Source: Chthonomonadales bacterium (GTDB taxonomy: Bacteria; Armatimonadota; Chthonomonadetes; Chthonomonadales; CAJBBX01). From it: 38,219 bases of DNA. Of this stretch, positions 16,479 through 20,685 are shown piece by piece. Numbering within the stretch: the stretch's first letter is position 1; every line of letters begins with the position of its first letter. Both the position numbers and the translations under genes were made by a program. The notes below the pieces were generated by a model. The model saw only the letters and a program-made list of their open reading frames with translations, was not told the origin of the DNA and made no database searches. Location of the stretch: positions 1 through 38,219 of the forward strand of contig DAIDHP010000007.1 of assembly GCA_027459625.1 (NCBI GenBank), given 5' to 3'.

Positions 16479-17015
16479 ATGATAATGAGTTCCAATACGA
16501 ATGAAAAAGAGATCGCCGTCCTTGCGGGCGGATGCTTTTGGTGCATTGAGGCGGTGTACAAGGAGGTGATTGGGGTTCTTGAAGTCGATTCCGGCTACAC
16601 TGGCGGCATGAAAGCCAATCCGACTTACGAGGAGATTTGCACCGGAAAGACCGGGCATGCGGAGGCTGTGAGGATCACCTTCGATCCATCCGTGATCAGC
16701 TATGACGAAATACTTCGTGTTTTCTTTCGCATGCACGATCCCACTACCATGAACCGTCAAGGGGCTGACTTTGGCTCTCAGTATCGCTCAGCCATTTTTT
16801 ATTTGAATGATTTGCAACGGAACGCTGCCGTAAGAATGATAAGCGAGATAGAGAATGAGAGGAATTTGAAGGGAAGGATTGTGACCGAAGTCAAACCGTT
16901 GGGTGAGTTCCACATAGCGGAGGAGTATCATCAGGATTACTTTGAGCGCAACCCTTCCCAAGCCTATTGCAGAGCGGTGATAGCCCCAAAAGTAGCGAAG
17001 ATGCGCGCGAAGTGA
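16479..17015 (+). CDS. msrA: Peptide-methionine (S)-S-oxide reductase MsrA
   Basis: 178-aa cytosolic repair enzyme that reduces methionine-S-sulfoxide in proteins or free methionine. The catalytic motif GGCFWC gives Cys19 as nucleophile, and the rest of the family pattern is complete: DSGYTGG, TGHAEAVRITFDP, FFRMHDPTTMNRQGADFGSQYRS and EEYHQDYF. A C-terminal Cys in QAYCRAVIAPKV may act as resolving residue. The ATG at 16479 follows AAGGA at 5 bases and is preferred over a GTG further upstream. Length is normal for a single-domain MsrA; no MsrB is fused or adjacent. It is divergent from the Tat-exported hydrolase gene and no intrinsic terminator was seen before the next promoter. Confidence 0.96.
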   Translation: MIMSSNTNEKEIAVLAGGCFWCIEAVYKEVIGVLEVDSGYTGGMKANPTYEEICTGKTGHAEAVRITFDPSVISYDEILRVFFRMHDPTTMNRQGADFGSQYRSAIFYLNDLQRNAAVRMISEIENERNLKGRIVTEVKPLGEFHIAEEYHQDYFERNPSQAYCRAVIAPKVAKMRAK

Positions 17016-17066
17016 TATCAAGCTGAATTATGGCGAGAATTTAACGCTTTTGAGTTTGGAAATGGG

Positions 17067-17095
17067 TTGACATTTACCGTAACCTCCTATATAAT
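17067..17095 (+). promoter_or_regulatory. Perfect consensus sigma-70 promoter
   Basis: TTGACA (17067-17072), exactly 17 bp, then TATAAT (17090-17095). Both hexamers are perfect, making this the strongest promoter seen in the window. Transcription should begin near 17102, heading into the small ORF and then the terminator at 17293-17329 before the HNH gene. Confidence 0.9.
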
Positions 17096-17126
17096 GTAAG
17101 CAATTAGTAAGCGGAAAGGCTGAACG

Positions 17127-17318
17127 ATGTATTTACCGGCGGATCAACGAAGAGCGAAAGGAAACAAGCTGTGCTCTCTGCTAAGGCGGACGAGCCACGG
17201 CTTCTACATGCCTGAGCATTTATCCGTGCGTCATTTTGAGGATGCGTTTGAGTCTCAACATTTCCATCTCCCCCAAATGCAATCTGTCGTGCAAACCCGC
17301 TCAGTGAATGCGTGCTGA
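17127..17318 (+). CDS. Small ORF (63 aa) ending inside an intrinsic terminator; possible leader peptide or small protein
   Basis: It begins about 25 bases after the predicted start point of the perfect promoter, with a weak site (GGAAAGG) 7 bases before the ATG. The product is a basic, Cys- and His-containing 63-residue peptide (LCSLLRRTSHGFYMPEH in the middle) with no recognised family, signal or membrane segment. Its TGA (17316-17318) lies within the 3' arm of the terminator at 17293-17329, so ribosomes reaching the stop would cover the hairpin. It may be a genuine small protein, a regulatory leader ORF for the HNH gene, or chance reading of a small RNA about 230 bases long. There is no run of one codon type as in classical amino-acid attenuators. 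Confidence 0.45.
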   Translation: MYLPADQRRAKGNKLCSLLRRTSHGFYMPEHLSVRHFEDAFESQHFHLPQMQSVVQTRSVNAC

Positions 17319-17329
17319 GCGGGTTTTTT
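17293..17329 (+). terminator. Intrinsic terminator between the small ORF and the HNH gene
   Basis: A perfect 12-bp stem (17293-17304 with 17315-17326) has a 10-base loop and a run of six T (17324-17329). The stop codon of the small ORF lies in its 3' arm. The HNH gene, 30 bases later, has no visible separate promoter, so it probably depends on read-through. Confidence 0.9.
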
Positions 17330-17359
17330 GTTAGCCGTGTCAAAGGAGGGTTCTTGATA

Positions 17360-17884
17360 ATGAGCGAGGAGGTTCTTGTTCTTAATAGCGATTATGAGCC
17401 GTTGAATGTGTGTCATGTGCGCCGCGCCATATCCTTGGTGTATCTGGGAAAAGCGGACGTTCTGCATACGAACGGTACGCGTCTTGCAACTCTGCACGGA
17501 GATGTGAGAACCCCCTCCGTCGTCAAGCTCAAGCATCACGTGCGCCGACCTTTGCCCGAATTAAAGCTATCAAGGCGCACGGTTTTCGCAAGGGATGGCT
17601 ACATATGCCAATATTGCGGTCAGCCTGCGAAAGACCTTACCATCGACCATGTGGTTCCGCGCCGGCACGGGGGGAAAACCTCATGGGAGAACGTGGTATG
17701 CTCCTGCAGGCGATGCAATATGAAAAAGAGCGACAAACTGTTGCATCAATCCGGAATGAAGCTGATGCGTCAACCCCACCGTCCCCGATACATTCCATAC
17801 ATCAGCCTGACAAAATACATGGCTGGTCGTGAGAACGAAGTATGGAGGAACTACCTTCCAGTATTCTCGGAGTTCATGGATTAG
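17360..17884 (+). CDS. HNH endonuclease family protein
   Basis: 174-aa cytosolic protein of a chromosomal HNH family common in Terrabacteria, Cyanobacteria and Deinococcus relatives. The N-terminal 70 residues (VLVLNSDYEPLNVCHVRRAI) are the conserved lead-in of that family. The nuclease module runs from about 72: FARDGYICQYCG gives the first CxxC (83, 86), LTIDHVVPRRHGG holds Asp96-His97, and WENVVCSCRRCNMKK holds Asn111 and the second CxxC (116, 119). These form a zinc-bound beta-beta-alpha site. AAGGAGG lies about 10 bases before the ATG (a TTG two codons earlier is also possible). The cellular role is not established; repair or nucleic-acid processing is likely. It lies after the terminated small-ORF transcript and has its own terminator. 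Confidence 0.9.
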   Translation: MSEEVLVLNSDYEPLNVCHVRRAISLVYLGKADVLHTNGTRLATLHGDVRTPSVVKLKHHVRRPLPELKLSRRTVFARDGYICQYCGQPAKDLTIDHVVPRRHGGKTSWENVVCSCRRCNMKKSDKLLHQSGMKLMRQPHRPRYIPYISLTKYMAGRENEVWRNYLPVFSEFMD

Positions 17885-17983: not shown

Positions 17984-18032
17984 CAAAGGCAATAATTAGC
18001 ATATATGGCAAAATACCTAAATAGCAATATAA

Positions 18033-18062
18033 TTGACATGAGCGTCGATTTTGAGATATGAT
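18033..18062 (+). promoter_or_regulatory. Promoter of the membrane pyrophosphatase gene
   Basis: A perfect TTGACA (18033-18038), an 18-bp spacer and TATGAT (18057-18062, 5 of 6). The leader would be about 55 bases and includes AAAGGAGG. Confidence 0.75.
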
Positions 18063-18123
18063 TATTATAAAATGCGCGGATTTTGTCCGACGCTGATTTA
18101 ACAAAGGAGGAACCGCGACCATT

Positions 18124-20685
18124 ATGGTTAATAATGGGGACGCAAATTCCCTGCGCATGTCTTTAATGCCGCTTTTCTCAAAGTGGCAGTCCGATACAGC
18201 AAGACACCTCTCCAGGCTTCTGAGCATGTTGCTGTTTATATCACTCGCCCTTCTATCCACTCGTCAGGCCTGGGCTTCTGGCGAGGCGGATTTGAAAGTT
18301 CCAGATCTAGGAAGTCAAAACTTCCTGGGCATGACAGGATCCCATCTGCTGATGATCGGAATAGTGGTTTGCATCCTATCCATGATCTTCGGCTTGGTTG
18401 TGTCTCAACAGCTTAAAAACGCACCCGTGCATAAATCCATGCTCGAAGTTAGCGAGCTAATCTACGAAACTTGCAAAACATATCTTGTTACGCAACTTAA
18501 GTTCATTGGTATCCTTTGGGCGTTCATCGGCACGATCATTTTGATCTACTTTGGCGTGTTAAACGGATACTTTACTGGAAGAGGGGGACACGCTCCGTAC
18601 GAGGTCTTTATCATCCTTCTCTTTTCGCTAATTGGAATCGCCGGAAGCACCTCCGTGGCGTGGTTCGGTATGAGGGTGAACACCTATGCTAATTCCAGAA
18701 CCTCCTTCGCCGCATTGAAGGGCAAGGCGTTTCCCGGGTACCAAATTCCGCTCAAAGCCGGTATGAGCGTCGGGATGTTGTTAATCTCCATCGAATTGCT
18801 CATCATGCTTTGCATCCTTCTCTTCATCCCTGGCACACTGGCGGGGTCTTGTTTCATCGGATTCGCCATCGGTGAGTCTCTTGGAGCTGCGGCTCTGAGA
18901 ATTGCCGGAGGGATTTTCACCAAGATCGCCGACATAGGATCCGACTTGATGAAGATCGTGTTCAAGATCAAGGAGGACGATGCGCGCAATCCGGGAGTTA
19001 TCGCCGACTGCACCGGAGACAATGCCGGAGATTCCGTGGGACCCTCCGCGGATGGATTCGAGACATACGGAGTTACTGGCGTCGCTTTGATCGCCTTCAT
19101 TCTGTTGGCGGTGACTAATATCACCGTGCAGATACAACTTCTCGTCTGGATATTCGTGATACGCATCGTGATGATGATCGCCGCCGCTTCGGCGTATTTC
19201 ATCAATGATATTCTCGCAAAATCGAAGTATGGCGACGCGGACTCGTTTAACGCTGAGAAACCGCTCACAACCTTAGTCTGGCTGACCTCCATTATTTCGA
19301 TTGCGTTGACGTTCATTGTTACGAAGATGGTTATTCCCGTGGTGGGCGGAGATACAACCATGTGGTGGAAGCTCTCCCTGATCGTCACCTGCGGCACTTT
19401 AGCCGGAGCGATCATACCTGAGTTGGTTAAGGTGTTCACCTCCACCGAATCGAGCCATGTTAAGGAGATCGTCTCCGCCTCCAGAGAAGGCGGCCCATCC
19501 CTAAATATCCTCTCCGGTTTCGTGGCGGGAAATTTCTCCGCGTTCTGGCTTGGTTTGGTGATCGTTTCCCTCATGGGGATCGCCTACCTCGTTAGTTTGA
19601 ACGGATTGGATGTTTTGATGCCGTTGAGCACTACCATCAATGTGTCCTCCGTCTTCGCCTTCGGTTTGGTCGCTTTCGGTTTTCTCGGCATGGGGCCTGT
19701 TACCATCGCTGTTGATTCCTACGGGCCGGTGACGGACAACGCTCAGTCGGTGTTCGAGCTTTCGGTGATCGAACAGATTCCCGGCATCGAAGCGGAGATC
19801 AAAAAGGATTTCGGCTTTGATGTTAATTTCGAACAAGCCAAGTACAATCTCGAGGCGAACGACGGCGCGGGCAACACCTTCAAGGCGACAGCCAAGCCGG
19901 TGTTGATCGGTACCGCCGTGGTTGGAGCCACCACGATGATCTTCTCGATTATTGTGGCGTTGACGGCTGGGTTGACCACGAATGTGGACAAGCTATCACT
20001 GCTAAACCCGCTCTTTCTGTTCGGTTTGATTATGGGAGGCGCGGTAATCTACTGGTTCACCGGCGCAGCCACTCAATCGGTCACAACCGGCGCTTATCAA
20101 GCTGTGGAGTTCATTAAGAAAAACATCCATCTGGAAGGTATTGAGAAGGCGTCCATAACGGATTCCAAGAAGGTGGTGGAGATCTGCACCAAATACGCGC
20201 AAAAGGGAATGTTCAACATCTTCATCGTTGTGTTTTGCATGACCTTGGCATTTGCTTGTCTCGACTCCTTCTTCTTTATCGGTTACCTGATTTCCATTGC
20301 GTTCTTCGGTCTGTTCCAAGCTCTGTTCATGGCGAATGCTGGAGGAGCATGGGATAACGCCAAGAAAATCGTTGAGGTGGAGTTGAAGGAGAAAGGCACG
20401 CCGCTTCATGATGCAACAGTCGTGGGCGACACGGTCGGCGATCCGTTCAAGGATACTTCCTCGGTTGCCATGAACCCGATCATCAAATTCACCACACTGT
20501 TTGGGTTGCTTGCGGTGGAGCTTGCGGAACAGATGACCAAAAGCGGTCAGGGGCAAATCCGATTCATTGCGTTCATAGTCTTGTTTTGCGTAGCTTTGAT
20601 CTTCGTGTACCGATCGTTCTACGCAATGCGAATCGTAATGGACGAGGATTTGGTAAACGTCGAAAAGACTGGATCCAAGGCCTAA
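18124..20685 (+). CDS. hppA: Membrane-bound proton-translocating pyrophosphatase
   Basis: 853-aa integral membrane pump that couples pyrophosphate hydrolysis to cation export across the inner membrane. Residues 30-52 look like an extra signal or first membrane helix (LLSMLLFISLALLSTRQAWA), followed by about sixteen hydrophobic segments. Substrate-site motifs are present: EDDARNPGVIADCTGDNAGD (284-303), ADGFETYG, AVDSYGPVTDNAQ, and near the end DATVVGDTVGDPFKDT. The potassium-dependence site reads GNTFKATAK (583-591): Lys587 is where potassium-independent proton pumps have Lys, but Ala590 replaces the usual Thr. Proton rather than sodium transport is therefore inferred. AAAGGAGG lies 13 bases before the ATG, a long spacing. 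It has its own promoter and terminator, with the dgt-like gene convergent. Confidence 0.94.
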   Translation: MVNNGDANSLRMSLMPLFSKWQSDTARHLSRLLSMLLFISLALLSTRQAWASGEADLKVPDLGSQNFLGMTGSHLLMIGIVVCILSMIFGLVVSQQLKNAPVHKSMLEVSELIYETCKTYLVTQLKFIGILWAFIGTIILIYFGVLNGYFTGRGGHAPYEVFIILLFSLIGIAGSTSVAWFGMRVNTYANSRTSFAALKGKAFPGYQIPLKAGMSVGMLLISIELLIMLCILLFIPGTLAGSCFIGFAIGESLGAAALRIAGGIFTKIADIGSDLMKIVFKIKEDDARNPGVIADCTGDNAGDSVGPSADGFETYGVTGVALIAFILLAVTNITVQIQLLVWIFVIRIVMMIAAASAYFINDILAKSKYGDADSFNAEKPLTTLVWLTSIISIALTFIVTKMVIPVVGGDTTMWWKLSLIVTCGTLAGAIIPELVKVFTSTESSHVKEIVSASREGGPSLNILSGFVAGNFSAFWLGLVIVSLMGIAYLVSLNGLDVLMPLSTTINVSSVFAFGLVAFGFLGMGPVTIAVDSYGPVTDNAQSVFELSVIEQIPGIEAEIKKDFGFDVNFEQAKYNLEANDGAGNTFKATAKPVLIGTAVVGATTMIFSIIVALTAGLTTNVDKLSLLNPLFLFGLIMGGAVIYWFTGAATQSVTTGAYQAVEFIKKNIHLEGIEKASITDSKKVVEICTKYAQKGMFNIFIVVFCMTLAFACLDSFFFIGYLISIAFFGLFQALFMANAGGAWDNAKKIVEVELKEKGTPLHDATVVGDTVGDPFKDTSSVAMNPIIKFTTLFGLLAVELAEQMTKSGQGQIRFIAFIVLFCVALIFVYRSFYAMRIVMDEDLVNVEKTGSKA

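What the first reader, a model, noticed from the sequence alone, without database searches (positions are those of the whole stretch)
17067..17360. Perfect promoter, small ORF and terminator form a possible translation-controlled attenuator before an HNH nuclease
Seen: a flawless TTGACA-17-TATAAT promoter, a 63-codon ORF starting about 25 bases after the predicted start point, and a 12-bp intrinsic terminator whose 3' arm contains the ORF's stop. The HNH gene starts 30 bases later with AAGGAGG but no visible promoter. Inference: ribosomes finishing the ORF would cover the hairpin and let transcription reach the HNH gene; if translation fails, only a short RNA of about 230 bases is made. The peptide has no codon runs, so the sensed signal would differ from amino-acid attenuators. 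The alternatives are a small RNA or an independent small protein.
Basis: partly seen in the sequence, partly recalled or inferred. Interest (0 to 1): 0.6.

Follow-up and report, generated by a model that had tools for sequence, protein, structure and literature searches.

The report
Leader-peptide switch before an IscB-like nuclease
In nearly a whole phylum of little-studied bacteria (Armatimonadota), the gene for a small DNA-cutting protein related to the ancestors of Cas9 sits behind a strong promoter, a conserved translated mini-gene and a stop signal for transcription, which together look like a switch that lets translation decide whether the nuclease is made.

Summary
In detail: a 12/12 sigma-70 promoter, a 63-codon ORF, an intrinsic terminator whose 3' arm contains the ORF's stop, then an HNH gene with no promoter of its own. 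The window is from an Armatimonadota MAG (Chthonomonadaceae-like). Comparing 162 HNH loci of this phylum shows the arrangement is real and old. A terminator lies within 150 nt of the gene in 126/162 loci (17/154 control stretches; 5/33 HNH loci of other phyla). Strong promoters occur in 73/154 (controls 1/154). The upstream ORF is under protein-level selection (pN/pS 0.43 in frame, 1.30 and 1.18 in the other frames). Its core is homologous across nine families, and all 23 strong whole-genome hits lie directly upstream of the HNH gene. What is conserved is the core's distance to the terminator (median 49 nt), not the stop-in-hairpin: stops sit just before the hairpin, inside it or beyond it. 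The HNH protein has an IscB-like PLMP-type N-terminal domain plus an HNH domain. Best reading: ribosome-mediated transcription attenuation by a new leader-peptide family, probably pyrL-like, with translation suppressing the terminator. The signal sensed and the direction of control are untested.

The parts
17067..17095 (+). consensus sigma-70 promoter TTGACA-17-TATAAT
   Evidence: 24 of 154 Armatimonadota HNH loci have a 12/12 promoter in the equivalent region, no far-upstream control does
17102..17102 (+). predicted transcription start (7 nt after the -10 box)
   Evidence: inference from the promoter; one search uses the same rule
17113..17119 (+). GGAAAGG, Shine-Dalgarno-like, 7 nt before the uORF start
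   Evidence: sequence
17127..17318 (+). uORF / leader peptide, 63 aa (P0001), MYLPADQ...VNAC*
   Evidence: coding selection; homologs
17167..17203 (+). hairpin inside the uORF, conserved in genus g3 (L003) with a UAAG to UUCG loop change and only synonymous codon changes in LLRRTSHG; possible pause hairpin (inference)
17212..17217 (+). CTGAGC, candidate antiterminator segment complementary to GCTCAG (17299-17304) in the terminator 5' arm
   Evidence: general support is weak (window p 0.03-0.07)
17235..17267 (+). conserved core of the leader peptide, FEDAFESQHFH (D39 codon 17241-17243)
   Evidence: alignment, whole-genome profile hit, core-to-terminator spacing
17293..17329 (+). intrinsic terminator: stem-loop 17293-17326 with T-run 17324-17329; uORF stop 17316-17318 in the 3' arm
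17343..17349 (+). AAGGAGG, Shine-Dalgarno sequence of the HNH gene
   Evidence: sequence
17360..17884 (+). stand-alone nuclease gene: PLMP-like N-terminal domain (about residues 3-63) plus HNH domain (about 64-144)
   Evidence: ortholog in 253/291 Armatimonadota genomes

Best explanation
The segment is a ribosome-mediated transcription attenuator: a phylum-wide, HNH-specific leader-peptide family plus an intrinsic terminator that controls a chromosomal PLMP-HNH (IscB-like) nuclease. A strong promoter starts a transcript that by default ends at the terminator, giving an RNA of about 230 nt. The uORF is translated. When a ribosome closely follows RNA polymerase through the conserved core, its leading edge reaches or passes the terminator's 5' arm, because the core lies 30-64 nt upstream and the stop sits at, in or beyond the hairpin. 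The hairpin then cannot form in time, RNA polymerase reads through, and the nuclease is made. Shown here: promoter, terminator, coding selection, geometry, lack of another promoter, specificity to this gene. Inferred: that translation suppresses termination; that the conserved core acts as nascent chain or pause site to time or sense something; that the signal is not one amino acid.
For: Terminator in 126/162 loci from 25 of 35 families, against 17/154 and 5/33 controls. Strong promoter enrichment 73/154 against 1/154. pN/pS 0.43 against 1.30 and 1.18. Peptide profile finds 20 loci in 9 families with none at the same cut-off in three control sets. In whole-genome six-frame searches every hit below E 1e-3 (23 genomes) lies immediately upstream of the HNH gene (places compared). 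Stops of ORFs of 20 codons or more are concentrated at the 5' arm (38/94, null mean 16.0, maximum 27 of 500 draws). Core-to-arm spacing is tight (median 49 nt, 30-64 in 58 of 60 loci) while core-to-stop spans 27-183 nt. No promoter of 10/12 or better lies between terminator and HNH in 122 loci. Known precedent: in E. coli pyrL an advancing ribosome inhibits the terminator (PMC5021804).
Against: No expression data. A terminator with occasional read-through would give the same anatomy without regulation. The peptide tail after the core is not conserved (frameshifting indels in family f35), so the stop cannot be the universal control point. Deep-branching families (f7, f12, f23, f25, f26) show no terminator. 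Weak support for an alternative antiterminator fold would allow the opposite direction of control.
Confidence: 0.68

Rival explanations
1. Classical attenuator of opposite sign: a ribosome stalled early in the uORF frees a segment about 50-110 nt upstream of the terminator that pairs with the terminator's 5' arm (antiterminator), so translation stress turns the nuclease on, as in vmlR or ilvB.
For: Own-versus-permuted complementarity is highest at -110..-50 (p 0.03, 0.07, 0.04) and absent at -150..-110 and -50..-10. Clear cases exist in single lineages: AGGCUCC against GGAGCCU in family f35, GCGGGUCGC in L003 and L009, GCGGGCUU in f9. In the window CTGAGC against GCTCAG.
Against: Effect is weak and uncorrected over 7 windows; mean duplex z only -0.44. 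Stops at the terminator foot would let a finishing ribosome block the terminator itself, the reverse of the trp/ilv design (ilvB logic: PMC13236596).
Confidence: 0.17
2. The small ORF makes an independent small protein, for instance an inhibitor of the nuclease made in excess because the terminator sits between the two genes; the nuclease is made only by read-through.
For: Protein-level selection; strict one-to-one linkage with the HNH gene.
Against: Only about 15 residues are conserved and the tail may be frameshifted. The peptide diverges beyond recognition between families while the nuclease stays about 54-74 % identical in the phylum. Fixed spacing of core to terminator is not needed for a trans-acting protein. 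HNH orthologs in other phyla lack the leader.
Confidence: 0.08
3. The short terminated RNA is a functional RNA, for example an omega-RNA-like partner bound by the PLMP domain of the nuclease.
For: PLMP domains of IscB/IsrB touch the 3'-terminal hairpins of their omega-RNA (PMC9581776, PMC9640706), and the leader is of similar length (about 145-270 nt).
Against: No Rfam match; fold of the window RNA is not more stable than shuffles (z -1.03); codon-wise substitution pattern; no structure seen to be shared between families except the terminator.
Confidence: 0.05
4. Unregulated arrangement: a fixed partial terminator that merely dampens a strong promoter.
For: Cannot be excluded from sequence.
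Against: Conserved translated core and its spacing to the terminator over most of a phylum need a reason.
Confidence: 0.02

Closest known systems
pyrL-pyrBI attenuator of E. coli (PMC5021804)
   Same: translated leader ORF runs up to or through an intrinsic terminator; a closely coupled ribosome stops the hairpin forming
   Different: pyrL responds to UTP through RNA polymerase pausing (my own knowledge) and controls pyrimidine synthesis; here there is a conserved peptide core and a nuclease target
vmlR uORF attenuator of Bacillus subtilis (PMC9226507)
   Same: uORF and intrinsic terminator before one gene; a pause hairpin is possible here too
   Different: tripeptide uORF inside an anti-antiterminator; control rests on mutually exclusive RNA folds, which are only weakly supported here
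ilvB1 amino-acid attenuator of Mycobacterium tuberculosis (PMC13236596)
   Same: short leader ORF and terminator between promoter and gene
   Different: has regulatory codons for branched-chain amino acids; here no one amino acid is shared by all families as a run
TnaC and other arrest peptides (PMC8429421, abstract only)
   Same: short conserved residues in an otherwise variable leader peptide (W/L-x-D-S/T/G core)
   Different: no stalling shown here; the stop codon position is not fixed relative to the core
IscB/IsrB PLMP domain and HNH proteins; 'IshB-like' stand-alone proteins (named in PMC12477157; the PLMP+HNH content of IshB is from memory)
   Same: PLMP-like fold then HNH domain in the encoded protein
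   Different: no RuvC domain and, in the window, no transposon genes seen next to it; upstream stretch codes for a peptide, not an omega-RNA

Membership tests
ribosome-mediated transcription attenuators (leader-peptide class) | leader ORF under translation-level selection between promoter and gene | tested here: met
   pN/pS 0.43 in frame against 1.30 and 1.18; promoter upstream
ribosome-mediated transcription attenuators (leader-peptide class) | intrinsic terminator after or overlapping the leader ORF, before the gene, and no other visible promoter | tested here: met
   126/162 loci; no promoter of 10/12 or better after it in 122 loci
ribosome-mediated transcription attenuators (leader-peptide class) | translation of the leader changes termination | not testable with these tools
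   needs reporter, Term-seq and Ribo-seq
amino-acid (trp/his/ilv type) attenuators | regulatory codons of one amino acid shared among homologs | tested here: not met
   cores differ: His-rich (f1, f3, f6), PPxWRDTxIR (f14), WSTGSWFGTRGRYR (f35), LEDGLC (f19)
amino-acid (trp/his/ilv type) attenuators | mutually exclusive antiterminator and terminator folds | tested here: inconclusive
   weak on average, clear in single lineages
pyrL-type coupling attenuators | leader ORF reaches up to, into or past the terminator | tested here: met
   stop at the foot of, in, or beyond the hairpin in the loci with an identified core; window stop in the 3' arm
arrest peptides | nascent chain stalls the ribosome | not testable with these tools
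   only a conserved core and its spacing are seen
Rfam RNA families (riboswitches, leaders, small RNAs) | match above gathering score | tested here: not met
   no match in the window; only chance-level matches in 17000-17450
IscB-type RNA-guided nuclease | RuvC domain and full length | tested here: not met
   174 aa, HNH only; IscB model score 62.7 against cut-off 175
PLMP+HNH stand-alone proteins (IshB-like) | PLMP-type N-terminal fold plus HNH | tested here: inconclusive
   N-terminal residues 3-63 align with HfmIscB 2-49 at 1.4 A over 48 residues, Z 6.5, and the HNH part with IscB and Cas9d, but Z is under 8 and the sequence-profile comparison with one PLMP domain was not significant (E 0.11)

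The most novel reading that the evidence does not exclude
The uORF encodes a phylum-wide arrest peptide: its fast-evolving but conserved core, placed so that a ribosome about 11 codons beyond it abuts the terminator, senses a cell state through the nascent chain and unleashes a domesticated IscB-like PLMP-HNH nuclease, so that DNA cutting is tied to the state of translation.
Probability: 0.25. Interest if true: 0.78.

Novelty: new member of a known kind. Interest (0 to 1): 0.6.

Why it matters
An attenuator conserved across most of a phylum and guarding a nuclease is, in the open-licence literature searched and to my knowledge, not described. The case gives a handle on the unknown role of widespread stand-alone PLMP-HNH-like proteins, relatives of the IscB ancestors of Cas9: whatever the leader senses should reveal when the cell wants this nuclease. 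It also gives a natural series of over 100 divergent leaders in which the peptide core and its spacing to the terminator stay while sequence, stop position and even mode of initiation (apparently leaderless in family f35) change.

Tried and rejected
Small RNA or riboswitch: no Rfam match, fold not unusual. Histidine attenuator: His-rich tails caught the eye in f1, f3 and f6 but are absent in f14, f35 and f19. Universal antiterminator: mean effect too weak. Universal stop-in-hairpin: stop position varies. Leader as a repeated element used by other genes: profile search over 291 genomes found strong hits only before HNH. Leader conserved with HNH in other phyla: terminators and promoters there are at background. 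PLMP homology by sequence profile alone was not significant; the fold comparison was needed. The first promoter control had a slicing error and was redone. First-pass stop geometry chose frames by His content and was replaced by the frame-neutral counts.

Full report
What was checked. The sequence at 17067-17360 is as described. The promoter TTGACA-17-TATAAT is the only 12/12 match in the 6 kb scanned, the terminator is the strongest of the 12 found, and no promoter-like + strand site lies between 17096 and 18005. The ORF 17127-17318 encodes MYLPADQRRAKGNKLCSLLRRTSHGFYMPEHLSVRHFEDAFESQHFHLPQMQSVVQTRSVNAC*. Its TGA (17316-17318) lies in the 3' arm of the terminator, and the HNH gene starts at 17360 with AAGGAGG at 17343-17349. 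Upstream lies msrA on the same strand (PMSR); downstream a separate promoter-like site at 18033 precedes an H+-pyrophosphatase gene.

Source and relatives. Orthologs of the HNH protein point to Armatimonadota, Chthonomonadaceae-like. The gene is near-universal there: 253 of 291 genomes. One congener has the whole 294-bp segment at 96 % identity; a genus of the same family keeps 53 bp at 89 %, with loop and third-position changes that leave the peptide stretch LCSLLRRTSHGF and a hairpin intact.

The arrangement is conserved. I collected the upstream DNA of 162 Armatimonadota HNH genes. A terminator finder gives a hit within 150 nt of the gene in 126/162, against 17/154 in stretches about 400-550 nt upstream of the same genes and 5/33 upstream of HNH genes of Chloroflexota, Verrucomicrobiota and others; 25 of 35 families examined have at least one. 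One locus (L124) was mis-oriented in that count and is among the misses. Promoters of at least 10/12 occur in 73/154 loci against 1/154 far upstream, 2/154 shuffled and 1/32 outgroup; 24 loci have 12/12. Between terminator and HNH start no locus of 122 has such a promoter.

The small ORF is selected as protein. In groups of close relatives aligned by codon, pN/pS is 0.43 in the ORF frame and 1.30 and 1.18 in the two other frames; the main groups with enough substitutions agree (f6 0.47, f35 0.40, f14 0.43, f19 0.37). Two small groups (f1a, f1b) show little contrast, and f8 has too few changes to tell. The alignments were guided by the protein, but are nearly gap-free in these groups. A profile started from 14 peptides finds 20 loci in nine families and none at the same cut-off in three control sets (far upstream, antisense, outgroup); 14 of the 20 are the seeds. 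A profile of the core (alignment A1) run against whole genomes finds 23 genomes with E below 1e-3, and each of those hits lies immediately upstream of the HNH gene (places compared). Many of these sequences are in the alignment, so their detection is expected; the point is that no second strong copy exists elsewhere in those genomes.

What is conserved in it. The core reads (R)xLRxLEDSFxHxxH in many families (window: FEDAFESQHFH, codons 37-47), PPxWRDTxIR in f14, RWSTGSWFGTRGRYRCR in f35, QQDRHWRHHRFGHVMR in f6. The equation of the f14, f35 and f6 cores with the LEDS type rests on position and a shared D/S/T/G, not on a significant alignment. After the core the peptide is free: in f35 there are frameshifting indels. 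The distance from the core codon to the terminator's 5' arm is 30-64 nt in 58 of 60 loci (median 49), while core-to-stop runs from 27 to 183 nt. Stops of ORFs with at least 20 codons are enriched at the foot of the 5' arm: 38 of 94 representatives have one within -14..+4, null mean 16.0, maximum 27 in 500 draws. In the window's genus and in g3 the stop lies in the 3' arm; in f14 and f35 the frame mostly runs past the terminator. In f35 the uORF starts at the predicted transcription start, so it would be leaderless.

The gene behind it. The HNH protein (174 aa) has an HNH domain most like those of IscB and type II-D Cas9. Its predicted N-terminal domain (whole-model mean pLDDT 86.6) matches the PLMP domain of an IscB at 1.4 A over 48 residues, Z 6.5. 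Z under 8 alone is not decisive, but the same order of domains and the motif VLVLNSDYEPLN...RRA...GKA support it; a sequence profile comparison with one PLMP domain is not significant (E 0.11). It has no RuvC domain.

Mechanism. By default the strong promoter would give an RNA of about 230 nt ending at the terminator. All three stop geometries share one consequence: a ribosome that has translated the core and follows RNA polymerase closely reaches the terminator's 5' arm. With the core 49 nt away and about 14 nt from P site to leading edge (my own knowledge), this happens when the core is about 11 residues from the peptidyl-transferase centre (inference). An advancing ribosome is known to suppress the pyrL terminator (PMC5021804). 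So translation through the core should favour read-through. Whether the core merely times the ribosome or senses something as an arrest peptide is open. An opposite, classical antiterminator design has weak support: complementarity between a segment 50-110 nt upstream and the terminator arm exceeds permuted arms (p 0.03-0.07 in three overlapping windows of seven tested, uncorrected), with good single cases (f35, f9, L003, L009). In the window CTGAGC at 17212-17217 can pair with GCTCAG at 17299-17304.

The stop-in-hairpin detail is a local variant of a more general rule (core-to-terminator spacing). What controls the switch, and in which direction, remains to be shown by experiment.

Limits. 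No expression data; mostly MAG sequences; family labels are the tool's codes (f1, f14 ...); the terminator finder misses some hairpins seen by eye (for example L143, L147, L153), so 126/162 is a lower bound. Deep-branching families f7, f12, f23, f25 and f26 show no terminator, so the leader may have arisen within the phylum. The literature search covered only open-licence papers.

Noticed in passing
window 17360-17884: The 'HNH nuclease' appears to be a stand-alone PLMP-like plus HNH protein (IshB-like), near-universal in Armatimonadota (253/291 genomes) and almost always with one strong match per genome, hence a domesticated chromosomal gene rather than a mobile one.
   Followed up: partly
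L178, L214-L224 (family f35 uORFs): The uORF start codon coincides with the predicted transcription start, so the leader is probably leaderless; TGGAGCACNGGYTCCTGG in its core is nearly invariant at third positions, suggesting a second, RNA-level constraint.
   Followed up: partly
L169, L180, L207-L210, L175, L235 (family f14 uORFs): Conserved Pro-Pro codons about 13 codons before the terminator, a possible EF-P-dependent pause site.
   Followed up: no
window 17167-17203: Stable hairpin within the uORF, conserved in the sister genus (L003) with a UAAG to UUCG loop change; possible RNA polymerase pause hairpin.
   Followed up: partly
window 18005-18124: Promoter-like sites (TTGACA-18-TATGAT at 18033) directly before the H+-pyrophosphatase gene (18124-20685), so HNH is probably monocistronic.
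   Followed up: no
L082-L084, L156 (family f15, genus g71): A deviant leader with a short frame and a different terminator (GCCCC...GGGGGTTTTG) before HNH; core not recognised.
   Followed up: no
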